Assembly: GCA_003131315.1 (NCBI GenBank)
Contig: PKUV01000003.1
Span: forward strand, 1 to 53,598
DNA length: 53,598 bases
Origin: Acidobacteriaceae bacterium
GTDB lineage: Bacteria > Acidobacteriota > Terriglobia > Terriglobales > Acidobacteriaceae
Direction: 5' to 3'
Shown here in pieces: positions 16,900-38,230 of this stretch. Position numbers and translations under genes: made by a program. Below the pieces are notes generated by a model. It saw only the letters and a program-made list of their open reading frames with translations. It was not told where the DNA came from and searched no databases. Every line of letters begins with the position of its first letter. Within the stretch, counting starts at the first letter, position 1.

Positions 16900-16944
16900 T
16901 GGTTGCGGGGGGCGGTGATTTGAACCGCCGACCTTTGGGTTATG
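16900..16944 (-). pseudogene. tRNA-Met(CAU) 3' exon, damaged copy
   Basis: The minus strand gives CAUAA (end of the anticodon loop), CCCAA, AGGUC, a T arm, acceptor CCCCGCA, discriminator A and encoded CCA. Compared with 37934-37976 it has a 2-base insertion in the T loop, which breaks the 7-nt loop. There is no tRNA 5' half next to the intron-like RNA that precedes it; the 37-aa membrane peptide gene abuts instead. So this is a displaced scar, not a working tRNA gene. Confidence 0.82.
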
Positions 16945-17201
16945 CGATCTGACTCACCTTTCGGTGAGAGTTGGACTGTACCTTCACCCACGAGGGGTGC
17001 TCGCCATCCAGTCTCTACGCCTTCCCCCACCATTCCGGGGGCTTGGTTCGGTATTGCCCTATCGCTCGCGGGACGTAGGTTCCACCGACTTTGACGAGTG
17101 ATCTTCCGGTGCATTTGCGCCGGACGCCCAATTTGCAAAAGCTCCTATGATAAGGATGTCCAGGGAACTCGAAGGAATCCTTAGGAGCGTGAGGTTATGA
17201 G
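16945..17201 (-). ncRNA. group I (IC3-like) intron remnant, copy 1
   Basis: About 257 nt directly before the tRNA-Met 3' exon. In the RNA sense I see the conserved core of tRNA-type group I introns: a Q-like GGCAATACCGAACCAAGCC, R-like GTAGAGACTGG and S-like GGTACAGTCC, whose GACTG/CAGTC would form P7. There is also a P8 hairpin CACCC...GGGTG, a P9 hairpin CTCACC-GAAA-GGTGAG, and a P6-like CCCCC...GGGGG. The element ends in G before the exon. The distal end reads CTCATAACCTCACG, again the anticodon-loop sequence, where similarity to copy 2 stops. Splicing is not expected because the 5' exon is missing. Confidence 0.78.
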
Positions 17202-17208
17202 CTCACGA

Positions 17209-17322
17209 CTATTTCTTGGACACCTTGTTAATTAAGACGACGAGCAGGACCACCACCAGTGCGCCGATCACCGTCCAGATCCACATCTCTCCGCCCATCC
17301 ATCCATATGCGTGGTTCATCAT
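17209..17322 (-). CDS. 37-aa single-helix membrane peptide
   Basis: MMNHAYGWMGGEMWIW is followed by one long hydrophobic helix (TVIGALVVVLLVVLINKV) and a basic end. The Met/His/Trp-rich front and short length resemble small membrane peptides found beside copper or heavy-metal genes; a YHS-domain gene lies 300 bp upstream on the same strand. Its stop codon is only 7 bp from the attachment core at 17201, so the island boundary directly abuts it. Ribosome site weak. Confidence 0.65.
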   Translation of the reverse strand: MMNHAYGWMGGEMWIWTVIGALVVVLLVVLINKVSKK

Positions 17323-17629
17323 AGTTTCGTTCCGCTACGAACAGCCCAGAGCACCCGATCTTGCTCGCGAGGAATAAGACTTCTCCTCGGGGCCGATCCT
17401 GGCGATGTGCTGTTTATCCGAACGCAACCACTTGTGATTGCGGCTTTAGAAGACGACCGGAGGGGGGCAGGCAAACTGGGTCCCTGTCTGGGACGACTCT
17501 TTGCGATAGAGCGAGATTAGCGCGGCCGAGCCGCTGTCACGCCACTTTCCACGACTTCACCAGGCACCCCGAACAGTCGCACAAAGCCTCAGTCATCATT
17601 AGGATCTAGCTACAGCAGCCATGGCCGCT
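17323..17629. other. intergenic, nothing recognised
   Basis: About 300 bp between the 37-aa peptide and the YHS gene. Only short frames without domain character; no repeat or RNA supported. Confidence 0.45.
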
Positions 17630-17806
17630 CTATGGCGTTCCCGCAGACTTGCCCAGGTATTGCTCGGGATTAAGATCGAACTTCTCTTTGCACTTGGAGC
17701 CGCAGAAGTAATATGTCTGACCTTTGTGCTCGGTTCGTCCAACGGCGGCGGCCGTTTCTATATCCATGCCGCACACAGGATCTTTCACTGCTGTTGTGCT
17801 ATTCAT
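17630..17806 (-). CDS. YHS-domain protein
   Basis: A 58-aa protein with the YHS signature: DPVCGMDIETAAAVG, then KGQTYYFCGSKCKEKFDLNPEQYL. Four cysteines and the aromatic FC pair are typical. YHS modules are found with copper P-type ATPases and in toluene monooxygenases and are thought to bind metal. I set the start at 17806, where AAGGAGAG precedes the ATG, rather than the longer frame. No copper ATPase is in the window; the only relative is the Met/His-rich peptide downstream. Confidence 0.9.
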   Translation of the reverse strand: MNSTTAVKDPVCGMDIETAAAVGRTEHKGQTYYFCGSKCKEKFDLNPEQYLGKSAGTP

Positions 17807-18116
17807 TTTGAACTCTCCTTCGTTCCCTACAGAGCGTAACAATGACGGTGCCGTTCTTCTGAGCAAGACTGATCACTCTCGCCCCGCTCGCCGAATGTCC
17901 GCTCCGGCGGAGCGGTATATGAACCAACAGTGAAGCGCACGGGCACGCGGCTGACCCACATGCCATTGGCAAAATGTCGAGCCCCCGGAAACCATCACCG
18001 TCACGCCAGGCACTCCGTCCCTGTATTTTGCCGGCTGTTCGGTTCCAGTACTCCGCTTCAGGAGGATAAGGCCCGCGCTCGTTACGGGCTGGCAACTTCA
18101 CTCCCCATCGCCTATC
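17807..18116. other. 3' side of an interrupted doxX-like gene and YHS promoter region
   Basis: Joining 19437-19514 to this segment through one CTAG copy continues the minus-strand frame as ...GAGPFSL-DRRWGVKLPA, which is how DoxX proteins end. The frame then runs on without further family character toward the YHS gene. The rest presumably holds the YHS promoter; no clear -35/-10 pair is visible. Confidence 0.45.
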
Positions 18117-18135
18117 TAGCAGGCTGCGGAAAAAT
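18117..18135. repeat. IS left inverted repeat plus CTAG target
   Basis: Perfect 19-base match to the complement of 19418-19436. Confidence 0.9.
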
Positions 18136-18258
18136 GGACGCCGCGACTTAGATTCTCTCCAGTCTCAGTGATTTTGTGATTGGGGGAAGGGTTTTGGCTG
18201 CATCCGCTGGTGTCCTGCGGATGCATTTTCGGGCCTGCGAGCACACTGCGACCTCGCA

Positions 18259-19347
18259 TTACGTTGCTTGCATCGCTAGATTCCTCATACGGACTAAGTT
18301 GTAGGCCGCGGCAGCAAAGGTGAAAACCCACCCCACCTTCAAGACCCCACGATGTCGAACCTTCCGCAACAGCGCGATCGTCTTCAGCCATCCGAAGCAC
18401 TCTTCAACGCGTTTTCTCTTCCTCTGACTGATGGCATATCCGGCGTGCTGGGTCGTGCGGGCATCAATCGCGCTCCCACCGGGCCGCTCCAGGTTTTGGG
18501 CCACGTGCGGCGTGACCTTTAAGTTTCTGCACTCGGCCACGAAATCCGCCGTGTCGTATCCCTTGTCGCCACCCACGGTTACCTGCTTCGTGCCCGGAAT
18601 CTGTTCCAGCATCACCAGTGCCGCATCCCGCTCCGCCGTTCCGTTGGCCTCGAACACCTCGGTGTTTACGATCAGTCCGTTGCGGTTCTCCACCAGCAGA
18701 TTCCCGTTGTAACTCAGCTTCGCTTCCTTACCCTTGCCTTTGCGTGCCATCCTCGCATCCGGGTCCGTCTTCGATGCGTGCGTCTGGTTGGACCGCTTCT
18801 CCCCGTGGAAGTCCACCGTCGCATTGCCAGGATCGTCCGGCGGAACGTCGTTCTTCGCATCCTTGCGCTGATAACTCTTCAAACTCGCCCACGCTTCCAG
18901 CAGCGTTCCATCCACCGTGAAGTGTTCGTCCGAGAGCAGACTCCGCTCGCGTGCCTGCTGCAGTACGGCTTGGAAGAAGGCTTCGGCAATGTTGCCATCG
19001 AGTAGGCGATCGCGGTTCTTAGTGAACACGGTCACATCCCAGATGGCGTCGTCCATGTTCAAGCCCACGAACCAACGGAACAGCAGGTTGTAGTCGAGCT
19101 GTTCCATCAACAGCCGTTCGCTGCGCACCGAGTACAGCGCTTGCAGCAGAAGCGCTCGCAACAACTTCTCCGGCGCGATCGACGGCCGCCCGGTTTTCGC
19201 GTACAGCTTGTGGAATCGTGGCTGCAGCTCTCTTAACGCCTCATCGGTCATGACACGAAGCCGACGCAAGGGGTGGTCTTGGGGCACTCGCTGCTCGGGG
19301 CTTACGTAGCTGAAAACATCCAACTGCTGCTCGTCTTTTCCACGCAT
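18259..19347 (-). CDS. IS5-family transposase
   Basis: Predicted 362-aa DDE transposase. The N-terminal DUF772-like region (GRPSIAPEKLLRALLLQALY, then SERLLMEQLDYNLLFRWF) is followed by the catalytic DDE core: first Asp in FTVDGTLLEAWAS, second in GGDKGYDTADF, and Glu in KRVEECFGWLKT with the Y/R-rich C1 signature. GAAGGAAG precedes the ATG. No frameshift or missing residue is seen, so the enzyme may be functional. Confidence 0.94.
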   Translation of the reverse strand: MRGKDEQQLDVFSYVSPEQRVPQDHPLRRLRVMTDEALRELQPRFHKLYAKTGRPSIAPEKLLRALLLQALYSVRSERLLMEQLDYNLLFRWFVGLNMDDAIWDVTVFTKNRDRLLDGNIAEAFFQAVLQQARERSLLSDEHFTVDGTLLEAWASLKSYQRKDAKNDVPPDDPGNATVDFHGEKRSNQTHASKTDPDARMARKGKGKEAKLSYNGNLLVENRNGLIVNTEVFEANGTAERDAALVMLEQIPGTKQVTVGGDKGYDTADFVAECRNLKVTPHVAQNLERPGGSAIDARTTQHAGYAISQRKRKRVEECFGWLKTIALLRKVRHRGVLKVGWVFTFAAAAYNLVRMRNLAMQAT

Positions 19348-19417
19348 GCTTCCTTCTTATCAGGTTGTGCTGTGGAAACAAGAGAGTTTCGGGGTACTCC
19401 GTCTGCTTCAAATCGAG

Positions 19418-19436
19418 TTTTTCCGCAGCCTGCTAG
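19418..19436. repeat. IS right inverted repeat plus CTAG target
   Basis: Complement of the left end; CTAG is followed by the doxX-like fragment. Confidence 0.9.
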
Positions 19437-19514
19437 GGAGAAGGGGCCTGCCCCAAGAACGGCAATCGCAAGGATCGCCACAATCATGCAAAAGTCCGTT
19501 CGTCCCTCATGCAT
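19437..19514 (-). pseudogene. doxX-like gene remnant split by the IS
   Basis: The minus-strand frame reads ...MIVAILAIAVLGAGPFS up to the IS. Restoring one CTAG joins it to LDRRWGVK on the far side, giving the GAG(R/P)(Y/F)SLD ending of the DoxX family of membrane proteins. The preceding helices are absent: upstream bases to 19560 show no DoxX character. So the gene was already truncated, or was cut at the same time. Confidence 0.55.
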
Positions 19515-19740
19515 GGCTGCCCAAAGACCCTCCGCGCCGAAACCCTAAAGCGTAACTAAAAGGCCGCGACGAACAATTCAATACGGCGGTATCCTGCGAG
19601 GGATCTCAGCCTCTTAGGGACGGGCCAGCTGGTTGCTTCGTGGATCATTTTCAGGAGTGTGCAAGTTTGACCAGTCGCACATCGTGCGCAAGTCGTACCA
19701 TCTCGCCTGTGAGGCAGGTCCTCAACTCTCTCGGAGGCTA
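19515..19740. other. upstream region of the small exported protein gene
   Basis: Holds the TTTGACCAG element at 19666-19674 followed by the inverted repeat TGCGCA region, about 70 bp before the next start. No gene. Confidence 0.4.
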
Positions 19741-20133
19741 ATGATGAATCTCAAGATCGTGACTGGGCTTATTGCGTTGTTCATGTTTGCGGGCACGGCC
19801 GGACTGGCCACGGCGCAGGACACCACAAAAACCACCCACAAGAAAACACGGACGCTCACCGGCTGTCTTCAAAAAGGCGAAGATGCCAACGAATACAACT
19901 TTACCGCCAAGGACGGCGGTACCTGGGAGATCAAGAGCGACAGCGTCAAACTCGACGAACATGTCGGGCATACGGTCAAGATTGTCGGTGTAGTGTCAAA
20001 TGCGATGGCGCACGGAATGAAGGAAGACACGAAGGAGGAGATGAAAGAGCACGGCATGGATAAACACGCGAAAGAGAGCGGTCACATGACGGTCACGAAG
20101 TTAACCATGGTCAGTGACACCTGCCAGAAGTAA
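19741..20133 (+). CDS. small exported protein of unknown function
   Basis: Predicted 130-aa exported protein: signal peptide MMNLKIVTGLIALFMFAGTAGLATAQ, a Lys/Thr-rich linker, then a short beta domain (LTGCLQKGEDANEYNFTAKDGGTWEIKSDSVKLDEHVGHTV as overlapping strands), a Met/His/Lys-rich hinge (HGMKEDTKEEMKEHGMDKH) and a closing strand with a cysteine. The beta part resembles a small OB-like fold common in Acidobacteriota periplasmic proteins. The Met/His-rich hinge might bind copper, but that is a guess. The tandem ATG has GGAGG close upstream; an element TTTGACCAG sits about 70 bp before. Confidence 0.72.
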   Translation: MMNLKIVTGLIALFMFAGTAGLATAQDTTKTTHKKTRTLTGCLQKGEDANEYNFTAKDGGTWEIKSDSVKLDEHVGHTVKIVGVVSNAMAHGMKEDTKEEMKEHGMDKHAKESGHMTVTKLTMVSDTCQK

Positions 20134-20256
20134 CCCTGGATCGTGCGTGATAGATATGACGGTGTTCACGGTTACACGACATCCGGCTTCGCAGTTCCTA
20201 TGATGACGGCTAGGTGGGAACCGAGAGACGAGGGTGGGCTCTTTGATTCGTCCGCT

Positions 20257-20296
20257 CGGAGTGAGAATCGCGGGTACCTCACGGGACAGTTGGGGC
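20257..20296. repeat. 40-bp direct repeat, copy 1
   Basis: Matches 20934-20973 in the same orientation with no mismatch seen over 40 bp. It contains GTGAG...CTCAC-type inverted bases and a GGTACC. Together the copies bracket the cupin gene. Confidence 0.85.
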
Positions 20297-20448
20297 GCCG
20301 AAACATTCAAGATTTAGTGCGGCATTGAATGGGTATTTTCAGAACCTACTCGCTGTCGATGGATGCCGCGATATTGTCACCGCGATAGGCAACAAATTGC
20401 CGCGACCATGCGAGATAGCGCATCGCCGCAAACTTGAGGAGATAAGTG

Positions 20449-20928
20449 ATGGTAAGCACTGCTGACAGGATCAAAGACATTGGGCCCCAGCCGCAATCGT
20501 TCGACATTGAACGCGCGACAAAGGAAAACACAAATTACCGTTCGGTCGCCTGGAGCGGGCGCTATCTGCAAGTGACGCTGATGTCGATTCCCGCTGGCGG
20601 CGACATTGGCCTTGAAGCGCATCCGGAGACCGATCAGTTCCTGCGCCTCGACGCTGGCAGCGGTCGAGTGCAGATGGGACCCGCGAAGGATAAACTGACT
20701 TTTGAAAAGGAAGTGTCAAACGGCTGGTGTGTCCTCGTTCCGGCGGGGACCTGGCACAACATCACCAATATCGGCGCGACGCCAATGCAGGTCTATGCGA
20801 TCTACGCGCCCGCCCATCATACACCCGACAAGGTGCAGGCGACGGCGGCGGCGGCTGAAGCCGACAAAGACGACGAGCCAGCGGCCTGGTCAGTGCAGCC
20901 AAAACATGCCCCCGATAAACACGGGTGA
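20449..20928 (+). CDS. cupin-domain protein
   Basis: Predicted 159-aa single-domain cupin. Seen: YLQVTLMSIPAGGDIGLEAHPETDQFLRLDAGSGRVQMG as the first metal motif (His and two acidic residues), then the second motif GWCVLVPAGTWHNITNIG, and an alanine-rich charged tail with several His near the end. Such cupins may be isomerases, dioxygenases or sensors, so the activity is not decided. The ATG at 20449 has GAGGAG about 8 bases upstream. The gene lies between 40-bp direct repeats and looks like a small movable cassette. Confidence 0.88.
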   Translation: MVSTADRIKDIGPQPQSFDIERATKENTNYRSVAWSGRYLQVTLMSIPAGGDIGLEAHPETDQFLRLDAGSGRVQMGPAKDKLTFEKEVSNGWCVLVPAGTWHNITNIGATPMQVYAIYAPAHHTPDKVQATAAAAEADKDDEPAAWSVQPKHAPDKHG

Positions 20929-20933
20929 CCGCA

Positions 20934-20973
20934 CGGAGTGAGAATCGCGGGTACCTCACGGGACAGTTGGGGC
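20934..20973. repeat. 40-bp direct repeat, copy 2
   Basis: Starts 5 bp after the cupin stop; identical to copy 1. The interval between copies is 677 bp. Confidence 0.85.
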
Positions 20974-21010
20974 CGACCAACGATTACCAAGTGCGAAGAT
21001 GAGTTTTGAA

Positions 21011-21847
21011 TCATGGCTTTCCCGCCACATCAGCGAGCGGGCTGCGGAACCATCCGGCAGGTGTGCGCTGGAATTGGGCGGTCTCGGATAGAGAGAAGGA
21101 ACTATGCTCCAGGTTCCAAGTGAGGCATTGGATGGAGACCGATGAGCAATCCACTTGAATGATATTAAATGAATTCAGTTCGCCGCGACCGCGCGTCGAG
21201 GTGGAGGTTCCCGCGTGGATAACGAGTGCGGAGTAGCCAGGAATTTTGTAACGCGCTGCGGTTTCGCTGGCGTGGCTGATATGCAAATGGCCGGAGAGAA
21301 TTAGATCAACACGGCAGCGCGCAAAGCCAGCCATGGCCATGTGCGCGCGTCCGACCAAGCCGTGAAGCTCGTGGGTTTCAGGTAAATCGAAAGGATGATG
21401 GGAGACGATGATGCGCGTGCGATTCTCGCCGCATGCTTCCAGCCGCGCGCAACTTCGGCCGACCTGCTGGCTGTTGATTCGGCCATTCTTAAAGGTGAGC
21501 GAACGGGCAGTATTGATGCCTACAATCGCGATTTCCTGATCGCAGTAGGACGGCTCCAGGTCCTTGGTGATGTAGCGTTGGTAATTCCGAAGAGGTTGCA
21601 GCGCGCGGGCGACAACGTTGTACAAAGGCACGTCGTGATTGCCCGGGACGACAATTTGCGGGGAAGGAAGAGCCTTTAGAAAACCGCGGGCTTCTTGAAA
21701 CTCGCGCGCTTTTGCGCGTTGGGTAAGATCCCCGGAAACGACAACGACGTCAGGCCTGGTTTCGGTGACCGCGACGATCAAGGCCTGCACAATGGCGCGA
21801 TCGATGCGACCAAAGTGCGTATCGGACAGATGAACAATCGTGCGCAT
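21011..21847 (-). CDS. metallophosphoesterase, class III PDE-like
   Basis: Predicted 278-aa cytosolic phosphoesterase with all metal motifs: D-x-H in LSDTHFG, GDLTQ, PGNHDVP, SHHPFD and GHLHISH. The order and length fit the calcineurin-like class III phosphodiesterases (CpdA group), which cleave cyclic nucleotides or other phosphodiesters. The gene begins 15 bp after the stop of a lipid kinase gene on the same strand, so the pair probably forms an operon acting in lipid or nucleotide phosphate turnover. Confidence 0.9.
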   Translation of the reverse strand: MRTIVHLSDTHFGRIDRAIVQALIVAVTETRPDVVVVSGDLTQRAKAREFQEARGFLKALPSPQIVVPGNHDVPLYNVVARALQPLRNYQRYITKDLEPSYCDQEIAIVGINTARSLTFKNGRINSQQVGRSCARLEACGENRTRIIVSHHPFDLPETHELHGLVGRAHMAMAGFARCRVDLILSGHLHISHASETAARYKIPGYSALVIHAGTSTSTRGRGELNSFNIIQVDCSSVSIQCLTWNLEHSSFSLSETAQFQRTPAGWFRSPLADVAGKP

Positions 21848-21862
21848 TTTACTTAGAGGCAG

Positions 21863-22780
21863 TCAAGCGCTGCTTCCCGGGACGTTTATTACGGGTGCGA
21901 TGACTTGCAGAGCACCCGGATGGATCAGGTAATTCAACGGAGTATTCATTTGATTTAGTTCCCCGTCCGTGGCAACGCCAATCTGAGGTCTCCGCGTCTC
22001 AATCGTGATTTCTTTCGTAATTAGAACATCAAGATCGCTGGCTTCGCGCAACCCTCCAAAAACCGCGAGAAAGGCCAGTCGCAACAGGTCAACACGGCTA
22101 GCGCGATTTGACACATAGAGGCATAATTCGCCCGCGTCGAGCCTTCGGCGCCCGCGGATATGCAAGCCTTCCATTTCATACTTATTATTGCCTATGAATA
22201 CAAATGGTGTCGTTCGCGAAAAGTTCTTTCCATTCGCGCGCAGGCGAACATGAAGAGGTAAGTAGTTTTCCAGGACCGAAATGGAGGCGTCAAGTAAAGC
22301 CAGCCACTTGTTGCGACCTCTCCTCTGCTCCTCATCGCGCTCGCGCACCATGCGTGGATAGATGCCGAGGCTGGAATTATTGAGGAAAATGCGTCCGTTG
22401 ACCTCACCGACATCCACTCGCATAGCGCGACCGGTGATGAGATTGCGGGCTGCGCCTTCGAGGTCTTGCGGAATATGCAAATCCTTGGCGAAATGATTCC
22501 AGGTCCCGAGCGGGAGAACGCCCAGCGTGAGGGATGTTCCCAGGAGTTCTTTTGCCACGGCGTTTACAGTGCCGTCGCCGCCCCCGGCCACAATGACTTG
22601 GCTCTTTTCGTTGACAGCCCGACGCGCCAACTCAGTGATTTCGGCGCCGCTGGGTGCTAGGAGAATGCGCGCAGGCGCGCCATTCTCAGCAAGGATTCGA
22701 GAAAGCTTTTCGCGAAGTTCCGGACCAGGGTGGCAACCCGAAGTGCTATTGAGGATGCAGGTTAAACTGGAAGACGCCAC
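21863..22780 (-). CDS. diacylglycerol kinase-family lipid kinase
   Basis: Predicted 305-aa lipid kinase of the DagK/YegS/BmrU group. The nucleotide loop GGGDGTVNAVAKEL (about residues 65-78) and the second motif LPLGTWNHFAKDL are clear; LPLGTxNxFA is a family hallmark. The C-terminal beta domain with a 'TDGE' element (VATDGEL) is also present. It would phosphorylate diacylglycerol or a related lipid at the membrane. The start is a GTG. It is followed at 15 bp by a phosphoesterase gene. Confidence 0.9.
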   Translation of the reverse strand: MASSSLTCILNSTSGCHPGPELREKLSRILAENGAPARILLAPSGAEITELARRAVNEKSQVIVAGGGDGTVNAVAKELLGTSLTLGVLPLGTWNHFAKDLHIPQDLEGAARNLITGRAMRVDVGEVNGRIFLNNSSLGIYPRMVRERDEEQRRGRNKWLALLDASISVLENYLPLHVRLRANGKNFSRTTPFVFIGNNKYEMEGLHIRGRRRLDAGELCLYVSNRASRVDLLRLAFLAVFGGLREASDLDVLITKEITIETRRPQIGVATDGELNQMNTPLNYLIHPGALQVIAPVINVPGSSA

Positions 22781-23175
22781 GTGGTTTGACAGCTTTCAGA
22801 TCGTAGATCTCAATCTTGCACGATCCGATTGAGCACTGGAATCAACAGCAGCGAAGCAAATTTTAACACACATATCACGCATCGACCGGACGGTTGCTGC
22901 TCTTGGGGCTTAGCCTGCTGGTTCAGTTTTACAGGTTTTGTTTCCTGCTTCTGTGGTTCACTGGAAGCCGATGAGCTTGATCGCTGTCATAACGTCGGTT
23001 GGATTATTGAGGTCAAGGAAGTAGTCGTCTCCTGCCCCATCAACCCACAAGATGCAGTCCCCATCCTCACCCGTTTGCTGCCTCCCCGCAGAGCCGGGGT
23101 CTCCCGTCGTACTAGCCGTCAGTTCCGAGTCTGCCTCAGACCTTGGTCAAGAATGCCTGCTTCTCGCCACCGCCG
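22781..23175. other. intergenic region downstream of the MgtA-type gene
   Basis: No gene supported. A weak inverted repeat CCCCG-GCTCTG-CGGGG (minus strand, near 23083-23098) beyond the ATPase stop could terminate its transcript. Confidence 0.4.
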
Positions 23176-29355: not shown

Positions 29356-29424
29356 GTTGTACCTCACTTGTGAGAGGAAACTGGACTGGCTTTTATACCG
29401 GCCCATTTCACTTCTTCACTACGT

Positions 29425-29913: not shown

Positions 29914-30003
29914 CCCGTTTTGGCCAGGGCGAGCGTATCGAATGGGAACTGTGGGCATTGGGTGACTTCGCCGAGCTTGAAGGAATAAAGGAGGGAAAGC
30001 TCA

Positions 30004-30417: not shown

Positions 30418-30662
30418 CGGACTGGCTCAAGAAACCCGCGAGACACTCCGGACGGGTACGAGCGGGAGAGCGTTGATCATTTGTTCGCTTCACTCCTCCG
30501 ACACGTTCGGCCAGATGCCAAGCGCTGATTTACAACACGATCAATTCTGAACAGTTTTCCGAAGCCCGAAGTTTGATACTGGCGGTTCACGAGGTCCTGC
30601 CAGTCTAGCGAACTTCGTGGACAAATTTGGTTTCATAACATTCTTGATGCAGGGAGGTTTCA
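30418..30662. other. upstream region of the paired membrane/soluble genes
   Basis: Contains CTGAACAGTTTTCCGAAG (30547-30564), similar to 26056-26073, about 110 bp before the next start. Confidence 0.4.
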
Positions 30663-31241: not shown

Positions 31242-31655
31242 ATGGCTGAACTGAAGAGAAAAGAAGGAGAACTTACGACGGCCGAATTGGCGGGCTACGG
31301 CGTTGAACAAAACCTGCCCGACGGACCGAAACTGGTGAAAGTCCAAGAGACGGAAACTCTAGACAGAGCGGCTGTAGTCTCAAAGCCCATGCCCTTGTTT
31401 TCTGAATCGGAGATGGGAGATTTTCGATCGCAGTGGAGCAAGGTACAGACTGGTTTTGTCGACGAACCGCGCCGGACGGTCGAAGAAGCAGACAAGCTGG
31501 TAGCTGCGGTGATGCAGCGACTCTCGGAAGGTTTCGCCAACGAGCGATCGGGCCTGGAAAAGCAGTGGGAAAGCGGCGACAACGTGTCCACTGAGGACCT
31601 GCGGTTGGCCCTACAGCGCTATCGTTCTTTCTTTGACAGACTGCTGAAATTGTAA
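31242..31655 (+). CDS. soluble paralogue of the membrane partner
   Basis: A 137-aa cytosolic protein without a membrane helix. Its middle and end repeat the two sequence blocks of the preceding protein: FVDEPRRTVEEADKLVAAVM and STEDLRLALQRYRSFFDRLL. The two would be expected to bind each other or the same ligand, with one held at the membrane. It starts at the first base after the upstream stop, consistent with strict coupling. Function unknown. Confidence 0.8.
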   Translation: MAELKRKEGELTTAELAGYGVEQNLPDGPKLVKVQETETLDRAAVVSKPMPLFSESEMGDFRSQWSKVQTGFVDEPRRTVEEADKLVAAVMQRLSEGFANERSGLEKQWESGDNVSTEDLRLALQRYRSFFDRLLKL

Positions 31656-31850
31656 GAACGAAGCCGCGTTCAGGCGTTGTGTTCTTTTTTGAACAGACTG
31701 CTCAACCTCGACGCGTCAGACTTTTCAAGAGACTTGGTATTCGTGCAGGTCCGCTAGCCACGCCAATAAGTGGCCAACATTGCGGCGGCTTGTGACGCGT
31801 TTCGTCCAAGCTGCCGGCAAACTCAACTGTCAGCCTTGGGAGGTTTCAAT

Positions 31851-31937
31851 ATGGGTCTAGAAACGATTTTGATTATCGTCCTGATTGTGTTCTTGCTTGG
31901 TGGAGGCGGTTGGTACTGGGGGCGCGGGCGCGGTTAA
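31851..31937 (+). CDS. 28-aa DUF3309-like membrane peptide
   Basis: MGLETILIIVLIVFLLGGGG followed by WYWGRGRG: same plan and near-same length as the 26-aa peptide at 29275. GGGAGG is spaced 7 bases before the ATG. TTGAACAG lies at 31689-31696 upstream. Below most annotation length limits. Confidence 0.7.
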   Translation: MGLETILIIVLIVFLLGGGGWYWGRGRG

Positions 31938-32111
31938 CGCGGCCTGCTCTAAAACGGGACCAGCCATGCAAATAGCAGCTCCGCCACTCAGTCAACGATT
32001 GACTCGGAGTTGAGGTCGATTCTTGTTCATAGCGCTGGCACTTCGGTCGGGGCGGGTGACGGAAGTCACGCTCCTTCAATTAGGCAAGATTCAATGATAA
32101 GGAGAAAACAG

Positions 32112-32291
32112 ATGAAGCCGAGTACGAAAGATGAGATCAAAGGCACTGCTCATGAAGTGAAAGGCAAAGTCAAAGAGACGGCCGGCAAAGTCACGAATAA
32201 TCCTAACTTAGAAGCCGAAGGCAACGCCGAAAAAAACACCGGCAAAGTTGAGAAGAAGGTCGGACAGATCGAGAAAGTGTTCGAGAAGTAG
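32112..32291 (+). CDS. CsbD-family stress protein
   Basis: A 59-aa very hydrophilic helical protein: KDEIKGTAHEVKGKVKETAGKV, then EAEGNAEKNTGKVEKKVGQIEK. The K(G/A)xxxExxGxxK repeats are those of CsbD proteins, abundant under general stress (for example sigma-B control in Bacillus); molecular role unknown. AAGGAGAAAAC precedes the ATG. The longer upstream frame has no ribosome site. Confidence 0.92.
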   Translation: MKPSTKDEIKGTAHEVKGKVKETAGKVTNNPNLEAEGNAEKNTGKVEKKVGQIEKVFEK

Positions 32292-32512
32292 ATTTGCCGG
32301 CGTCTGTCCGGATCAGGTTCAAGCGCTCGATATAACTGATGTACCGTCGCTCTCCGGTCAGTACTCCTGAGACCGGCGGGCGTCAGCCCGGCGATCGGAG
32401 TTCTGCACTCGGCGAGCCATCCTTGTCAGTCGCACGGACCGACCACACGGTGCACGAACCCGCTCCGCCAAGCTTGTGGACAATCAACGGCGCATCTGCG
32501 CGCGGGAAACGC

Positions 32513-33757
32513 ATGTCTGATCAGGTTACGAATAAGAGCGCGGCTGCTGAACAAAGTCAGGTACGCCTGCAGGAGATGCCCCCGCCGTCTTCGATCTCAT
32601 CATCCGATAAGCTGCTCAGCAGAATCGCGATTCTACTCTTCATAGTAGTCGTGGGCTTGCTGACGGTGTTCGGGTACTACGCCAGCTCGATTTGCATCAC
32701 GGTTGTCCTGGCGGGATTTCTTGCGATCCTGTTTGACCCCCTGGTAGTGAAACTGGAGAGACTGCATATTCCGCGCAGTGTGGCTGCGGCGGGCATTGTG
32801 CTCGCAGGCATCGGGCTGATCGGCCTGCTAGGTTACGCGATCTACGGAAGAGCGATGAGCTTTGCGGAGGAACTTCCAGTCTACGCCTCGAAGATCCAGC
32901 AAACCATTGAGCCAATTAGCCGGAAGATCCAGAGCGTTCAGCAAAGTGCCGGAACCCTTACAAACGACGTTCATCCCACCAAAAAAGTCCCGGAGGTTCG
33001 GCTGCAGCAATCGCCAACCTGGCCTGATTATCTGGTGCGGGGTGTGGGATCTGTGTGGGGAGCGCTGATCATTGCCGGAGTGGTTCCATTTCTAACGTTT
33101 TTCATGCTCTGCACCAAGGACCAAATGGCCGTTCGAATGAACGGCCTCTTCAGCTCCAGGACAGACGCGGTTCGGTTCATCACGAACCTGAACCAGATGA
33201 TTCACGGTTTCGTAGCTGGCAACCTTATCGTCGGCTCCGTGATGGCCTTGGCCACCACGCTGGTCTTGTGGGGGGTTGGCGTGAAAGGCGCCATACCTCT
33301 CGGAATCGCCAGCGGGCTGTTAAATCTGCTGCCGTTCCTCGGACTGATTGCTGCGCTTGCTCTTCCTTTAGCGGCGGCCCTCCTTCAGTTCAGCACACCG
33401 GGACCATACATTGTCATCACTCTGACGATTCTCTTCCTGCATGTCATGTCCGCGAATCTTCTGATTCCGAAATTTATCGCCAATCGCGTGAGTATCGGGC
33501 CGGTGGCGGCGACGATTGGGATTCTTTTCTGGGGCTGGTTGTGGGGTGTGATGGGATTGCTGCTCGCTGTACCGCTCACAGCATTCATCAAGCTGGTCGC
33601 GGATTTGCATCCGTCCTTATGTCACGTGTCCAACATGCTGGCGCTGACACCACGTCCGACTCCGCGTTGGGTGCGCTACAGTGAAACGGCTTTGGAACGG
33701 GCGATTCCTTACTTGCGCCCTCGCGGGGAAAAGGTTTCTATAGGACGCCAACCCTAG
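32513..33757 (+). CDS. AI-2E family transporter
   Basis: Predicted 414-aa membrane protein with about eight helices of the AI-2E (PerM/YdiK/TqsA) family, proposed as exporters of autoinducer-2 or cation antiporters. Seen: FLAILFDPLVVKLERLHIPRSVA near the first helices, a soluble region of about 100 residues, then VVPFLTFFMLCTKDQM, GLLNLLPFLGLIAALALPLA, and the C-terminal GILFWGWLWGVMGLLLAVPLTA, the family hallmark. The frame opens earlier at 32339, but the ATG at 32513 gives a good N-terminus. It follows the CsbD gene and may be part of the same stress block. Confidence 0.9.
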   Translation: MSDQVTNKSAAAEQSQVRLQEMPPPSSISSSDKLLSRIAILLFIVVVGLLTVFGYYASSICITVVLAGFLAILFDPLVVKLERLHIPRSVAAAGIVLAGIGLIGLLGYAIYGRAMSFAEELPVYASKIQQTIEPISRKIQSVQQSAGTLTNDVHPTKKVPEVRLQQSPTWPDYLVRGVGSVWGALIIAGVVPFLTFFMLCTKDQMAVRMNGLFSSRTDAVRFITNLNQMIHGFVAGNLIVGSVMALATTLVLWGVGVKGAIPLGIASGLLNLLPFLGLIAALALPLAAALLQFSTPGPYIVITLTILFLHVMSANLLIPKFIANRVSIGPVAATIGILFWGWLWGVMGLLLAVPLTAFIKLVADLHPSLCHVSNMLALTPRPTPRWVRYSETALERAIPYLRPRGEKVSIGRQP

Positions 33758-33852
33758 CGACTGCGGAACCAATTTCCACCAATCGACGCGGACCGGAGAC
33801 ATAGAGCTAAAGTGGACAGCTTGGAAGACGCACGTTCTGCCACACTCTAGCC

Positions 33853-34107
33853 ATGACAACGAAAACGATTCCGGCATACCTGGAAGACGAGCGCCAAAAA
33901 GATTGCGACGCTCAATTGCGGATGGAAGAAGAAGCCGCACGCATCCAACCGCTGAACCATGGCCATCATCGCACTGCGAAACAGCCCAAGCTGAAATCGC
34001 CATCTCTGGTTAAAGCCGCGCCCAAAGCGAGAAAGGCCGCGGCACAAGCTCGGATAAAGCCACGCACCGCGCGAAAGACGGCAACGAAGGCCCGCAAGGT
34101 GGCGTGA
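33853..34107 (+). CDS. small Lys/Ala-rich basic protein
   Basis: An 84-aa protein: acidic/His-rich first half (DERQKDCDAQLRMEEEAAR), then a repeated K-A-x-K/R-A tail (KAAPKARKAAAQARIKPR). The tail resembles histone H1-like bacterial proteins that coat DNA, so a nucleoid role is possible, but low complexity makes this weak. It lies 45 bp before the next gene and probably shares its transcript. Confidence 0.6.
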   Translation: MTTKTIPAYLEDERQKDCDAQLRMEEEAARIQPLNHGHHRTAKQPKLKSPSLVKAAPKARKAAAQARIKPRTARKTATKARKVA

Positions 34108-34152
34108 ACCCAAGTCTACGGTCGCTGGATCGATTAATACCGGAGGCTGAAC

Positions 34153-34914
34153 GTGAGTATCCCTGTACTGAACACATCGTGGTTCATCGCGAGTCTCGTA
34201 TTGTGCATGGGAATGGCCACACCTTCGCATGCACAGGCCATTCAACCAGTCCCGCCAACCCCTATCGACGTCAAGAAGGTCGAACGCGGCGGGACGCCTT
34301 GGAATCCACAATGGGACCAGATCATCGAGAACGCGTTACCGCCTGAAATGCTTTCTTCGCAGGTTCCGCGGGGCGTCCGCCGATTCTGCCCGCGATTCTA
34401 CGAGATGGGCGAAACCGACAAACGCGCATTTTGGGCTTACTTCTTCCAGGCTCTTGCGGGTGCTGAAGCCGGCCTGAATCCGAACACGAGCGTCCGCCAC
34501 GCCAAGCCGGAAGCCGCGAAACGCGATGTGGTGGAAGGAATGGCCATGCGTAGGGAAGGATTGTTGCAGCTTGCGTACGCAGACCAAAAGCGCTACGGCT
34601 GCGATTTCAATTGGCAAGCGGACCGTGCGCTAAAGGCGAACGATCCGGCCAAAACCATTCTCCAGCCGAAGAACAACCTCGAATGTGGAGTGAAGATTCT
34701 GTTTAACCAGATCATCGTCCAGCACAAGCCCTTGCTGACCCGGTCGGGATACTGGTCGCCGTTGCATCCGGAGGGGCCGAGTTACCGTGTGTTCGCCAAG
34801 CAGATGACAAATCCGCCAGCTGCATGTGGTCTGTCCACCAAGTCGACGATCGACAAATCGGCTACGACGAAGTCCGTGCAGGACGGCGCGAACCGGGGTA
34901 AAACTCCTAAATAG
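34153..34914 (+). CDS. exported protein, possible lytic-transglycosylase fold
   Basis: Predicted 253-aa exported protein: signal peptide ending near SHAQA, then a globular domain with AYFFQALAGAEAGLNPN and EGLLQLAYADQKRYGC. The E-x2-LNPN and (G)LLQL pattern resembles the catalytic Glu and GLMQ region of SLT-type transglycosylases, so peptidoglycan cleavage is possible. Several other SLT landmarks (AYN, NPxxN) are not clear. Three cysteines could form a disulfide. The start is GTG with GGAGG upstream. Confidence 0.72.
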   Translation: MSIPVLNTSWFIASLVLCMGMATPSHAQAIQPVPPTPIDVKKVERGGTPWNPQWDQIIENALPPEMLSSQVPRGVRRFCPRFYEMGETDKRAFWAYFFQALAGAEAGLNPNTSVRHAKPEAAKRDVVEGMAMRREGLLQLAYADQKRYGCDFNWQADRALKANDPAKTILQPKNNLECGVKILFNQIIVQHKPLLTRSGYWSPLHPEGPSYRVFAKQMTNPPAACGLSTKSTIDKSATTKSVQDGANRGKTPK

Positions 34915-35184
34915 TTTGGCACCTCGTGTCCTGTGAGCCATCCACGATGCTCACTCCGAGTGGGCGAATCGACGACTTTACGCGTTCGCTAGCAGGTGCA
35001 TCGGTACTGGATCAGTTTGACTATCCACAGGCCACGATTGAGGGGCACGGGCCTTCCCAATAGGCCGAGCCTATTGCGGAAAGTTCATAACGACGGAGTA
35101 GATGCTGAAAGCGGGGATAGGAGTTCGATGGATCCCAGAAGCTCATCCAACTCTCGCAGCTGATTGCAGTCCGCTGATGAAAAT
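34915..35184. other. convergent intergenic region
   Basis: No gene supported. It lies between a rightward gene and the terminator of the leftward PRC-barrel gene. Confidence 0.45.
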
Positions 35185-35212
35185 GGGCCGCCCGGTTAAG
35201 TCCAGACGGCCC
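35185..35212 (-). terminator. intrinsic terminator of the PRC-barrel gene
   Basis: The minus strand reads GGGCCGTCTGG-ACTTAA-CCGGGCGGCCC, an 11-bp stem (two G-T pairs) with a 6-nt loop, followed by ATTTT. It starts 10 bp after the stop codon. Confidence 0.85.
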
Positions 35213-35222
35213 GATTCTCTAC

Positions 35223-35636
35223 TTAAGCGGCGGTTTTCGTCTTGACGGACCCTTCTTCCCAGTAAGGCGTGTAACCGTAGTGCTTATAAATGTTGGTTCC
35301 CCAGGTCGAATCGGCCATGTTCGGCCAGTTGTCTTTATCGAAGCCCGGAGCATTCTCCAGTTGTTTCTTGTCAAGGTTCAGGACGGCGTGCTTTTCCGCC
35401 AAATTGAAGCGGAACGCGTTCCACGGAATGGCGAAATACTTGTCACCCATCCCAAGAAAGCCTCCAAAGGATAAGACCGCGTATGCGATCCGGCCGGCTC
35501 CAGCGTCGATTACAAGGTCTTCGATTTTTCCGAGGTCCTCATTCTGTGCGTTGACGACTTTACTGCCGATCACCGTCTTCTTGGCTGGAACTATATCTGT
35601 ATAGCTGACGATTCTTTTTTCTGCGATGGTTTCCAT
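35223..35636 (-). CDS. PRC-barrel domain protein
   Basis: Predicted 137-aa protein with one PRC barrel: KTVIGSKVVNAQNEDLGKIEDLVID, then GRIAYAVLSFGGFLGMGDKYFAIPW and an 'AVLNLDKKQLENAPGF' strand. These domains occur in photosynthetic reaction centre H subunits and in the RNA-binding protein RimM; the free forms are stress-related with no fixed activity. An ATG with GAGGTAGAG upstream. Own terminator and a 41-bp upstream element shared with the 26-aa peptide gene. Confidence 0.92.
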   Translation of the reverse strand: METIAEKRIVSYTDIVPAKKTVIGSKVVNAQNEDLGKIEDLVIDAGAGRIAYAVLSFGGFLGMGDKYFAIPWNAFRFNLAEKHAVLNLDKKQLENAPGFDKDNWPNMADSTWGTNIYKHYGYTPYWEEGSVKTKTAA

Positions 35637-35689
35637 GTCTCTACCTCACTCCTAAAAAGAAGCTTGCTGACTCGCCTGCTTCCTCTGCG

Positions 35690-35730
35690 CCATCGTAAAA
35701 GAGGCGAAGATGGATATCTGGTCAATTCGA
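35690..35730 (-). promoter_or_regulatory. shared upstream element, copy before the PRC-barrel gene
   Basis: The minus strand reads TTGACCAGATATCC-(A)TCTTCGCC-(T)CTTTTACGATGG, aligned without gaps to 29425-29467. It ends about 53 bp before the start codon, placing it where a promoter or activator site would be. Confidence 0.6.
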
Positions 35731-35953
35731 GACACATCTCCTTGTAAGGGTATCGTTTTCATCCCCTAGAAGATGGAATTCTTCCCGGGACTCTGCGACT
35801 TGCCGAGGACTCGTGAGTGCGCGATTTTGACCAGCTTTTGAAGTCCCTACGGTCCATGATCAAAATTGTGAGGAACCAAACGGCTGCGATAGCGACGCGG
35901 ATCTACGAGCGGTTCCTCCGGTTCATCTCACTGGAACAAGGAACAATGGCGGC
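35731..35953. other. divergent intergenic region
   Basis: Contains TTTTGACCAG at 35825-35834, about 120 bp before the rightward gene. No gene supported. Confidence 0.4.
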
Positions 35954-36844
35954 ATGAACAACTGGATCAAAACGTGTCGCGCATGGACATCGCCATCGGT
36001 TGTGAGATTGAGACACAGCCCGGTGCCTTTTGCACTGGCGATCATCCTGCTTGGTGTACCCGCACGTCCTCAGTCCGCTCCCAGCAGCCAAGCGTCGGCC
36101 AACGATCTGGCACGGCGGGTGATCAAGAATGAACTAACTTTCCAAGACGACCACACCAACTGGATGTACCGACTCGAAAAGGAACAGTCTGGAAAGAAGC
36201 GGGTCGAGGAGATTATTGAGACAAAAGAAGGTTCTCTCAGTCGACTCTTATCCATTGACGACCGCCCCCTTAGCGCGAAACAGCAGGAGGAAGAGAACAA
36301 GCGTGTTCAGGAGTTAATGACCAGTCGGAGTGCGAAGCGAAAACTGCAGCGAGAACTGGAGGAGGCGACCCTACAGGGCAGAAGGCTGTTCAAGATGCTG
36401 CCTGATGCATTCGTATTCACCTATGCAGGTGACGACAGGAGCCTGGTAAAGCTGAGCTTTCGACCAAACCCGAATTTCCACCCGCCTTCGATGGAGGCCC
36501 GCGTGTTCCACGACATGGAAGGCGAGATGTGGGTGGACTGCAAACAGGAGCGGCTGGCTGCGTTTAGTGGGCGTCTCACACGGGACGTGAAATTCGGGCT
36601 CGGCCTGCTGGGACACCTGGACAAGGGAGGCCATTTTGAGGTCAGGCAGGCAGAAGTTGTCCCAGGCCATTGGGACCTGACTAACATGAGTGTGGAGATC
36701 ACAGGAAAAGCTCTCTTGTTCGCGACCATCGGAGTGCGGAAGAAGGAAACCCATGCAGACTTCTACCAGGTATCCGATGATCTGACGCTTGCTGAGGCCG
36801 CGGACATGCTCAACCGAAAGCTAGTTGTAGCGGATAGCCACTAA
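35954..36844 (+). CDS. exported protein of unknown function
   Basis: Predicted 296-aa exported protein. A long basic front leads to a hydrophobic helix (FALAIILLGVPARPQS), then an acidic helical region rich in E/K/R (about 60-130) and a C-terminal beta domain (FVFTYAGDDRSLVKLSF, MEGEMWVDCKQERLAAFSGRL, GKALLFATIGVRKKE). The beta half looks like an outer-membrane lipoprotein-sorting or LolA-like curved sheet, which is an inference from strand pattern only. No partner gene is obvious. Confidence 0.7.
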   Translation: MNNWIKTCRAWTSPSVVRLRHSPVPFALAIILLGVPARPQSAPSSQASANDLARRVIKNELTFQDDHTNWMYRLEKEQSGKKRVEEIIETKEGSLSRLLSIDDRPLSAKQQEEENKRVQELMTSRSAKRKLQRELEEATLQGRRLFKMLPDAFVFTYAGDDRSLVKLSFRPNPNFHPPSMEARVFHDMEGEMWVDCKQERLAAFSGRLTRDVKFGLGLLGHLDKGGHFEVRQAEVVPGHWDLTNMSVEITGKALLFATIGVRKKETHADFYQVSDDLTLAEAADMLNRKLVVADSH

Positions 36845-37307
36845 GGGGACACACTTCTCCAGAGAGCCCTCGTTGATTTCTGACCGCCTCACGCGGCGCT
36901 GAGGCGCCGCTCTTCCACGTGACGGGCACGTGGGGGAGGTTCCTGCCAGCTTTCATGTCATTGGACTTTGGATCAGCGTAGATAAAATGTTGGCTCCATC
37001 CAGAGAAACAGTAAAAATCTGAACTTCACTGCCTTATACCCTCCGCCGATCTTCTGACACTGTTCGTCTTCGATAGTCCAACCCTCTTACCGTGTCCTAG
37101 TGGCACGATGTTTTACATTCGAGATGCTACATTTTGCAGATTGGTAAAGACTGTTCAAGACTGCTCGGTATGAAAACAATGCTGAAACTGCCAGCCTGTT
37201 CCAAATTGACCTGTAATCCCTTTGCGCTCGTGACATCGTGCAAATATGCATAAGAACGACCGAAGCAAGAATCCAACCAAGCGACACTCGCTCGCGTCAA
37301 GAAGGAA
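36845..37307. other. gene-free stretch after twin hairpins
   Basis: More than 450 bp with no supported gene apart from the hairpins at 36893-36933. The sequence turns AT-richer toward 37200. Confidence 0.4.
36893..36933 (+). terminator. twin perfect hairpins after the exported-protein gene
   Basis: GCGGCGC-TGAG-GCGCCGC (36893-36910) and CCACGTG-ACGGG-CACGTGG (36915-36933) stand four bases apart, each with a perfect 7-bp stem. No T run follows. They could stop transcription or protect the transcript end. Confidence 0.55.
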
Positions 37308-37481
37308 ATGGATGAGCCGCGCATGGCCGAATCCACGCGGGGAAAAGACGTGACCCAGACCACGCGGCAGGAACTGGAAAAGCTGCCGCAGTCGAACCTG
37401 AGAACGATTCCGGGGCCGCCGGTGCACAGTGAGCTCCCGGAGGAGAAAAATGATGGCAAAGCTGACCAAGCCAGCTCGTGA
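37308..37481 (+). CDS. 57-aa hydrophilic ORF overlapping the next gene
   Basis: MDEPRMAESTRGKDVTQTTR leads into QELEKLPQSNLRTIPGPP and an acidic tail. It overlaps the following start by 32 bp in another frame. AAGGA lies almost at the ATG, so spacing is poor. Composition is protein-like, but no family is recognised. Confidence 0.35.
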   Translation: MDEPRMAESTRGKDVTQTTRQELEKLPQSNLRTIPGPPVHSELPEEKNDGKADQASS

Positions 37482-37674
37482 TCGGATATCCGCAACCAAG
37501 TTCGCTTTTCCGAAGCAACGCAAGGAGCCGCTGGAAAATGCCTCTCACGTACGCAACGCTGTTGCGCGTTTTAATCAGGTGAAGGGCGTCACGGAAGCGG
37601 AACGCCGTGCGGCGTGGAAGCGGATACAGTCTGCCGCGAAGCGATACGCAGTGGAACTTGAAGAGTCCGCCTAG
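37450..37674 (+). CDS. small protein, DUF6582-like
   Basis: A 74-aa basic helical protein: KLTKPARDRISATKFAFPKQ, then EPLENASHVRNAVARFNQV and GVTEAERRAAWKRIQSAAKR. The (E)PL-x-(N/D)A-x-HVRNA-x-(A/S)RF block is a recognisable conserved motif of small proteins often annotated as DUF6582; role unknown, nucleic-acid contact conceivable. GGAGAAAA precedes the ATG. Confidence 0.75.
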   Translation: MMAKLTKPARDRISATKFAFPKQRKEPLENASHVRNAVARFNQVKGVTEAERRAAWKRIQSAAKRYAVELEESA

Positions 37675-37933
37675 CCGAACTCGGCACGGTTGATGCTTGC
37701 CATGGCAGCGGGAGTCGAAGCGCTTTCATCCAGTCTCCGGAGCTCGTCACTCGTGTTCTGCAGCCTGTGCGTTGGCTGCTCATCTTCGATGAATTTCCCG
37801 CGATCTTGAGAAGACACGTCACCAAATAGGAGGGCACACTCTTCAGACTGTTGTCATGTGAGGGGAGCATCCTAAGTCTCATTATGGGAATTGCAGATAG
37901 GCGAACGCCACTGCTGTTTGGCAGTGGCGTTCA
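37675..37933. other. intergenic, nothing recognised
   Basis: About 260 bp before the tRNA-Met scar. A CACTGC...GCAGTG inverted repeat touches it at about 37908-37927. Confidence 0.4.
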
Positions 37934-37976
37934 TGGTTGCGGGGGGCGGATTTGAACCGCCGACCTTTGGGTTATG
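37934..37976 (-). pseudogene. tRNA-Met(CAU) 3' exon, intact copy
   Basis: The minus strand reads CAUAA-CCCAA-AGGUC-GGCGG-UUCAAAU-CCGCC-CCCCGCA-A-CCA, 43 nt in perfect tRNA register from the anticodon to an encoded CCA. The matching 5' half (acceptor TGCGGGG, D arm) is not found upstream of the intron-like RNA or anywhere near. It is thus an attachment-site scar rather than a working tRNA. Confidence 0.88.
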
Positions 37977-38230
37977 CGATCTGACTCACCTTTCGATGAG
38001 AGTCGGACTGTACCTTCATCCACGTGGGATGCTCGCCATCCAGTCTCTACGCCTTCCCCCACTATTCCGGGGGCTTGGTTCGGTATTGCCTTATCGCTCG
38101 CGCGACGTAGGTTCCACCGACTTTGACGAGTGATCTTCCGGTGCATTGCTGCGCCGGACGCCCAATTTGCAAAGCTCAATCAGGAATGCCAAGGAACTCT
38201 TGGGAATCCTAAGGAGCGTGAGGTTATGAG
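37977..38230 (-). ncRNA. group I (IC3-like) intron remnant, copy 2
   Basis: About 254 nt joined to the tRNA-Met 3' exon. It has the same core as copy 1: Q-like GGCAATACCGAACCAAGCC, R-like GTAGAGACTGG, S-like GGTACAGTCC (P7 GACTG/CAGTC), P6-like CCCCC/GGGGG, P8 CATCC-CACGT-GGATG and P9 CTCATC-GAAA-GGTGAG. Relative to copy 1 a C-G pair in P8 becomes T-A with both sides changed, and a C-G in P9 becomes a T-G wobble. The 5' region (P1/P2) has diverged most. Similarity to copy 1 ends at CTCATAACC, the anticodon loop sequence. Confidence 0.8.

What the first reader, a model, noticed from the sequence alone, without database searches (positions are those of the whole stretch)
16900..38230. Group I intron-like RNAs travel with the tRNA-Met 3' half at two integration scars
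Two segments 21 kb apart (16900-17201 and 37934-38230) each hold a tRNA-Met(CAU) 3' exon joined to a roughly 255-nt RNA with IC3-like core motifs (Q, R, S; P7 GACTG/CAGTC). Neither has a tRNA 5' half. Both end at the same anticodon-loop sequence CTCATAACC. The copies differ by a compensatory C-G to T-A change in P8 and a C-G to T-G change in P9, which indicates selection on structure after the copies separated. Known: tRNA genes are common integration targets and some host group I introns. Inferred and unusual: the intron-bearing half-gene itself serves as the mobile attachment unit, so each island would restore an intron-containing tRNA.
Basis: partly seen in the sequence, partly recalled or inferred. 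Interest (0 to 1): 0.85.

Follow-up and report, generated by a model that had tools for sequence, protein, structure and literature searches.

The report
tRNA introns displaced by inserted DNA islands
Halves of a start-codon tRNA gene that still carry a self-splicing-type intron lie at the joints between inserted DNA islands in soil acidobacteria, which suggests that DNA-inserting enzymes working at this gene can also remove, store and spread its intron.

Summary
Two group I introns (RF00028, 51.2 and 51.5 bits) lie on the minus strand, each joined to the 3' half of initiator tRNA-Met, without a 5' half. The genome holds a third copy; I count 21 copies in 12 Acidobacteriota genomes, four of them complete intron-containing tRNA-fMet genes (three at the native locus beside an AMP-binding ligase gene).

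The segments are recombination joints: an island end abuts the anticodon-loop core CTCATAACC. The intron's own first bases copy the 3' exon, so the core survives at the exon-intron junction, and recombination there moves intron, 3' half and terminator as one block.

In this genome the working gene is intronless with an integrase beside it. An integrase lies within 3 kb downstream of 27 of 37 testable intronless halves but 0 of 19 intron-bearing ones. Yet the intron block moves between genomes: for 9 of 9 copies with a sibling in their own genome, the closest relative lies in another genome. The blocks begin cargo islands in which I found no integrase.

Best reading: integrase recombination at the anticodon loop governs gain and loss of this intron, a bacterial group I counterpart of a model proposed for archaeal tRNA introns. 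The restoring step was not seen.

The parts
37934..37976 (-). Copy 2: 3' half of tRNA-fMet (CATAACCC...GCAACCA), intact
   Evidence: sequence
37977..38228 (-). Copy 2: group I intron, 252 nt, begins CATAACCT, ends GATCG
   Evidence: RF00028 51.5 bits on 37984-38169; alignment
38222..38230 (-). Recombination core CTCATAACC at the junction of island end and intron 5' end (copy 2)
38233..38347 (-). Island end (endB) abutting copy 2; also abuts an intronless half at C23 of the same genome
   Evidence: 88.7% over 115 nt
37900..37933 (-). Terminator-like hairpin after copy 2 (GAACGCCACTGC...GCAGTGGCGTTC)
   Evidence: in 10 of 11 aligned scars and 0 of 34 distinct intronless halves
16900..16944 (-). 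Copy 1: 3' half of tRNA-fMet with a 2-base insertion in the T arm
16945..17199 (-). Copy 1: group I intron, 255 nt
   Evidence: RF00028 51.2 bits on 16952-17148
17193..17201 (-). Recombination core CTCATAACC (copy 1)
17202..17350 (-). Island end (end1) abutting copy 1; the same joint occurs in palsa_286 (G200)
   Evidence: 96% over 156 nt; longer blocks
9974..10003 (-). Third scar: decayed intronless tRNA-fMet 3' half
   Evidence: 86.7% over 30 nt
10004..10107 (-). endA, conserved right end of the islands, with two GTCC motifs
   Evidence: 90% over 104 nt to the C114 island end
8399..9736 (+). Tyrosine integrase convergent to the intronless scar; the only PF00589 match on this contig
   Evidence: PF00589 7.9e-24
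10125..16899 (.). Cargo segment between copy 1 and endA (6.8 kb), no PF00589 match
   Evidence: recurs in G200 and partly in G207
17351..37899 (.). Cargo segment between copy 2 and copy 1 (20.7 kb with end1), including a P-type cation ATPase and a transposase; no PF00589 match

Best explanation
The two segments are 3' parts of an intron-containing tRNA-fMet gene lying at joints between integrated islands. The recombination core is the anticodon stem-loop GGG-CTCATAA-CC. The intron lies between U33 and C34 (numbering recalled), and its first seven bases, CATAACC, repeat the first seven of the 3' exon. So the core is rebuilt at the exon-intron junction and tyrosine integrases can act there as if no intron were present. 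Exchange at this core swaps everything 3' of it as one block: intron, 3' half, hairpin terminator. Elements that carry an intronless half beside their integrase turn an intron-bearing gene intronless and leave the intron block at their far end; that is the state seen here. Islands without an integrase begin with an intron block and end with a conserved arm (endA); they are probably moved in trans or accreted with integrase-bearing neighbours, and so carry the intron between genera. If such an island came to lie next to a 5' half, the gene would again contain the intron. Seen in sequence: complete genes, scars, shared ends, linkage of intron and hairpin, integrase asymmetry, cross-genome similarity. 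Inferred: integrase action at this core, mobilisation in trans, splicing, restoration of an intron-bearing gene.
For: Complete intron-bearing genes in four relatives, three at the native AMP-ligase locus. Intron starts CATAACC in 13 of 15 aligned copies although the next ~60 nt vary strongly. Ten of 17 copies without a 5' half are directly preceded by endA; endA also abuts intronless halves. G000's native gene is intronless with a convergent integrase. Integrase within 3 kb: 27 of 37 intronless and 0 of 19 intron-bearing halves (Fisher p 5e-8). Hairpin: 10 of 11 scars, 3 of 4 complete genes, 0 of 34 distinct intronless halves. Nearest intron in another genome for 9 of 9 copies with a same-genome sibling. 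The island of copy 1 recurs in G200 and G207 at 94-99% in collinear blocks over 700 bp, against 83-91% and 68-78% for native flanking DNA. fMet is single-copy in 147 of 157 genomes with a match.
Against: No complete intron-bearing gene was found followed by cargo and endA, so restoration is unseen. Four of 11 aligned scars have changed exon halves (w1, C114, L073, L144b). Three further copies are truncated. The complete gene of G206 starts CTGCACC, so the core copy is not needed for the intron. Conservation beyond the hairpin is seen between G014 and G206 but not in the other five pairs of complete genes. No phage, plasmid or IMG/VR record carried the intron. No integrase was tied to endA islands. 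All genomes are drafts. Splicing is untested.
Confidence: 0.7

Rival explanations
1. Passive relic model: the ancestral tRNA-fMet had the intron and its terminator. Elements with intronless halves replaced it many times, and every intron-bearing half seen today is stranded native DNA, at most carried along inside larger accretions, never an attachment end in use.
For: No integrase beside intron-bearing halves (0 of 19). The DNA just after several scars resembles that after complete genes for about 35-130 bp. Four of 11 aligned scars have changed exons.
Against: fMet is single-copy in 147 of 157 genomes with a match, yet G000 has three divergent intron-bearing halves and G202 four. Nearest relatives lie in other genomes, 9 of 9. 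Segments bounded by an intron block and endA recur between genomes.
Confidence: 0.25
2. Ordinary group I homing or reverse splicing: the introns spread as RNA or by an endonuclease, and integration scars merely happen to contain them.
For: A cyanobacterial tRNA-fMet intron encodes an endonuclease (table and reference title seen). The P1 pairing GCU:GGC can form in complete genes and at endA joints, which end in GGGCT.
Against: The introns are 238-264 nt, short for an endonuclease gene; the open frames across them were not tested against endonuclease families. Hairpin and flank travel with the intron, which homing of the intron alone does not predict. Copy 2 is preceded by TACT, which lacks the GCT needed for P1.
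Confidence: 0.07
3. Assembly or binning artefact of draft metagenome genomes.
For: The native gene of G000 has an NN gap inside the tRNA, and several scars lie near contig ends.
Against: The joint of copy 1 with both flanks recurs in a separately published assembly (palsa_286). endA-intron joints occur in six genomes.
Confidence: 0.04

Closest known systems
Archaeal tRNA intron gain by an intron-containing attP (Sugahara et al. 2012, PMC3293823; abstract and first part of the Discussion read)
   Same: A tRNA intron is proposed to be gained or moved by site-specific recombination at a tRNA attachment site, with a scattered tRNA fragment left behind.
   Different: There: a protein-spliced archaeal intron in tRNA-Thr, one locus, a 5' fragment, a recombinase gene beside the tRNA. 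Here: a group I intron in bacterial tRNA-fMet, 21 copies, 3' halves, and no integrase beside the intron-bearing half.
Genomic islands in tRNA genes with anticodon-centred attP, including tandem arrays (Islander, PMC4383910; passages read)
   Same: Displaced 3' tDNA fragments mark island ends; crossover at the anticodon loop; arrays of fragments.
   Different: Islander requires an integrase per island; these islands show none, and the displaced fragment contains an intron. The passages seen do not mention introns.
Group I intron of cyanobacterial tRNA-fMet (Synechocystis; Biniszkiewicz et al. 1994 and Bonocora and Shub 2001, reference titles seen, content recalled)
   Same: Group I intron in the anticodon region of the same tRNA, with evidence of lateral transfer.
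   Different: The cyanobacterial intron encodes a homing endonuclease; here spread seems tied to integrase sites.
CIMEs, cis-mobilizable elements (term in search listings only; content recalled)
   Same: att-bounded cargo without recombination genes of its own, in accretion arrays.
   Different: One att end here is an intron-bearing tRNA half with its terminator.

Membership tests
Group I intron (RF00028; IC3 subgroup recalled) | Match to the family model | tested here: met
   51.2 and 51.5 bits for the two window copies, cut-off 50; third copy 42.7, under it
Group I intron (RF00028; IC3 subgroup recalled) | P3-P8 and P7 core helices | tested here: met
   57 named pairs (7 of them in the tRNA T arm and its base) 98.8% formed in 15 copies, 35-50% when slid; P3 and P7 never vary. 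Number of further pair types did not exceed the shuffles (12 against 12.5)
Group I intron (RF00028; IC3 subgroup recalled) | Self-splicing | not testable with these tools
   intron ends in G and GCU:GGC P1 is possible in complete genes; no experiment
Genomic island in a tRNA gene (Islander sense) | Displaced tDNA fragment at the island end | tested here: met
   17 intron-bearing halves without 5' half, plus intronless scars
Genomic island in a tRNA gene (Islander sense) | Integrase gene in the island | tested here: not met
   0 of 19 intron-bearing halves within 3 kb; no PF00589 match in the window and G179 islands
CIME (cis-mobilizable element) | Bounded by att-like sites and lacking an integrase | tested here: met
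   islands in the window, G200, G207 (related) and two in G179; the G179 islands have truncated introns at their left end, so that site is no longer whole
CIME (cis-mobilizable element) | Mobilised by another element | not testable with these tools
   only inferred from recurrence between genomes
Sugahara-type intron vector (attP with intron) | Recombinase gene beside the intron-bearing tRNA | tested here: not met
   0 of 19
Sugahara-type intron vector (attP with intron) | Intron present in the gene after integration, absent before | tested here: inconclusive
   3' parts of G014 and G206 genes are alike while the 250 bp upstream are at random level, but no before-and-after pair was found

The most novel reading that the evidence does not exclude
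A bacterial self-splicing intron has become a passenger of DNA integrases. Its 5' end copies the anticodon arm, so the attachment core survives the intron, and islands without an integrase of their own carry the intron with half a tRNA gene from genome to genome, giving and removing the intron in an essential initiator tRNA by site-specific recombination instead of homing.
Probability: 0.4. Interest if true: 0.85.

Novelty: new variant of a known kind. Interest (0 to 1): 0.62.

Why it matters
How short group I introns without an endonuclease gene come and go in tRNA genes is an open matter (my own knowledge), and for archaea tRNA introns have been proposed to shield the gene from integration (stated in PMC3293823). 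Here an intron in a mostly single-copy initiator tRNA gene appears not to block integration, because its first bases rebuild the attachment core; the intron then leaves or arrives with the DNA that integrates. The case can be tested with a few plasmids, and it offers many copies of a bacterial counterpart to a model that, in the paper I read, rests on one archaeal locus.

Tried and rejected
Phages and plasmids: matches only to the tRNA 3' half (15 and 16 records, none covering 80% of the query). An exact 23-base core pattern found nothing in IMG/VR and 17 places in 16 stretches of GTDB contigs. I looked for a native gene order downstream of the tRNA to tell stranded native DNA from cargo: 14 scar flanks and 9 native flanks showed no conserved order, only scattered single-gene similarity, so this was not decisive. 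The intron tree is weakly resolved (0 of 12 inner branches starred), so I rely on pairwise identity. The minimum-energy fold of a whole precursor pairs the 5' exon with the P7 region; not used. A phylum draw found the intron core in 1 of 396 genomes, the window's own, with two candidates scored per genome and one of its three copies missed; the family draw found it in 4 of 200 with three candidates scored per genome. These are lower bounds. Selection on scars was considered: mean pairwise difference is 5.7% in the core and 29.9% in the 5' domain among scars, but 7.8% and 57.7% among complete genes, so the contrast says nothing special about scars. I found no report of a bacterial group I intron carried in an attachment site in searches (open-licence papers; most results seen as listings only).

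Odds: best explanation 0.7.
Full report
Observation. The two segments are real and on the minus strand. Rfam scores both over the group I gathering score (51.2 and 51.5 against 50). Each is followed by the 3' half of tRNA-fMet and lacks a 5' half; ARAGORN finds no tRNA in the window. The genome has a third copy at C114 (42.7 bits, under the cut-off). Copy 1 has a two-base insertion in its T arm, so its exon half is damaged. The window holds a third scar, intronless and decayed, at 9974-10003.

Complete genes. Four relatives carry a whole intron-containing tRNA-fMet: G014 (QIAP, AA126), G112 (JAFATF), G206 (SRVP_12) and G201 (gp3 AA109). Three lie beside the AMP-binding ligase gene that also flanks many intronless fMet genes of the family and the gene of the window's own genome. 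The order is GGGCT | intron | CATAACCC; the introns of the 15 aligned copies are 238-264 nt. The intron's own first bases are CATAACC in 13 of 15; C114 has one extra base and G206 reads CTGCACC. So the anticodon stem-loop GGG-CTCATAA-CC, a usual place for integrase crossover (PMC4383910 passage), is rebuilt at the exon-intron junction. The next ~60 nt differ by 30% on average among scars, the P2-P9 core by 5.7%. A structure of 57 pairs with the P7 pseudoknot is 98.8% formed, against 35-50% when slid; one measure, the number of further pair types, did not exceed its shuffles.

Joints. Including truncated ones I count 21 intron copies in 12 genomes: G000 3, G014 3, G112 1, G179 2, G200 1, G201 1, G202 4, G203 1, G204 1, G205 1, G206 1, G207 2. 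Small remnants in G179:C28 and G202:C120 are left out. Seventeen lack a recognisable 5' half. Ten of those are directly preceded by the same island end, endA, recognisable over about 100-190 bp with mostly unrelated DNA beyond. endA also abuts intronless halves, for example at 10004 in the window and in G179:C72, G115, G146 and G126; in G165 and G193 the half next to it is decayed or gone. Copy 2 has another end, shared with an intronless scar at C23 of the same genome (89% over 115 nt).

Which half has the integrase. In G000 the only 5' half found is at C159: an intronless gene beside the AMP-ligase gene, with an NN gap in the tRNA, followed by a convergent integrase whose frame begins 47 bp after the half. 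I tested 3 kb downstream of each half (less where contigs end) with a profile built from nine integrases of these loci. Of 20 intron-bearing halves listed, 19 were testable and 0 had an integrase. Of 41 intronless halves listed, 37 were testable and 27 had one; Fisher p about 5e-8. The halves are not all independent: copy 1 and the G200 copy are the same joint, and some halves share a genome. A separate Pfam search of four genomes agrees: the only PF00589 match on the window contig is at 9065-9589, none is listed on C114 or on the G014 and G112 contigs with introns, and the one on G179:C72 lies beyond endA. So elements that carry an integrase carry an intronless half: entering an intron-bearing gene, they make it intronless and displace the intron.

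The intron block as a mobile unit. A hairpin after the half accompanies 10 of 11 aligned full-length scars, 3 of 4 complete genes (G201 has a variant) and 0 of 34 distinct intronless halves. For nine of nine copies with a sibling in their own genome, the nearest intron is in another genome: G014 L048 and G202 L073 are 96.9% identical against 84.2-88.3% to their siblings, while the ligase regions of these hosts are 68-72% identical (orthology of the G202 copy not proven). Between G014 and G206, 92 bp of DNA after the half are 90% identical while the 250 bp upstream of the tRNA are at random level; the other five pairs of complete genes show no such conservation past the hairpin. The island of copy 1 recurs in G200 and partly in G207 at 94-99% in collinear blocks over 700 bp, against 83-91% and 68-78% for native flanking DNA. 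In the family, 147 of 157 genomes with a match have one fMet gene and ten have two, so several divergent intron-bearing halves in one genome are best explained by repeated arrival.

The islands. Segments with both ends visible run from an intron-bearing half to endA: 6.8 kb in the window and in G200, 3.7 kb in G207 (related to it), 10.7 kb in G179:C72 and 11.2 kb in G179:C28; in the two G179 islands the intron at the left end is truncated. No PF00589 match lies inside those of G000 and G179, and the window integrase finds no relative inside those of G200 and G207. Cargo includes FeoB, SCO1/CusF and a TonB-receptor-like protein (C72) and an RND pump with its adaptor, a P-type ATPase and a cation-efflux protein (C28). 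In the window a disulfide oxidoreductase with rhodanese domain lies between copy 1 and endA, and a P-type cation ATPase between copies 2 and 1. They look like passengers that need an integrase from elsewhere; G000 has 51 PF00589 matches.

Limits. All genomes are drafts. The restoring step, an intron block joined to a native 5' half and followed by cargo and endA, was not seen. Four of 11 aligned scars have changed exon halves. The P8 exchange splits complete genes as well, so selection on scars is not shown. Survey counts are lower bounds because few candidates per genome were scored.

Literature. The nearest published idea is Sugahara et al. 2012 for an archaeal tRNA-Thr (abstract and first part of the Discussion read), repeated in a review (PMC8371274, passages) that also notes intron-containing tRNA genes as integration sites in Thaumarchaeota. 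Passages of PMC3073962 list an endonuclease in the Synechocystis tRNA-fMet intron; passages of PMC5733544 describe cyanobacterial tRNA introns; a search of PMC9897764 for 'intron' found none. I found no report of a bacterial group I intron in this role in the searches named under Tried and rejected.

Noticed in passing
window 11742-11910 (+): Rfam V_AS7 (Vibrio RNA AS7, 98.1 bits, cut-off 90) matches antisense to the disulfide oxidoreductase gene 10268-11947; probably a reflection of the conserved coding sequence, not an RNA.
   Followed up: no
window 50498-52758 (-): VirB3-like and VirB4/TrbE-like type IV secretion genes at the right contig end, so a conjugative element probably lies to the right of copy 2.
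   Followed up: partly
G000 whole genome: 51 PF00589 matches and at least eight intronless tRNA-fMet 3' halves or fragments outside the intact gene (window scar, C95, C94, C92, C23, C157, C107, C96): tRNA-fMet is a crowded integration site.
   Followed up: partly
L071 3603-3885 (-), gp2 AA91: The intron scar there has a T-arm-like stretch (GGTAGTTCAAATCC) inside the 5' part of the intron, between CATAACCCGC and the core.
   Followed up: no
window 274-4275 (-): A 1333-aa protein with about six repeats of roughly 640 bp, 60-80% alike.
   Followed up: no
window 20252-20296 and 20929-20973: A 45-bp direct repeat, 98% identical, 677 bp apart inside the cargo segment.
   Followed up: no
L134 13704-13760 (G179:C28): endA followed by a decayed intron 5' part without the rest, a later stage of scar decay.
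   Followed up: no
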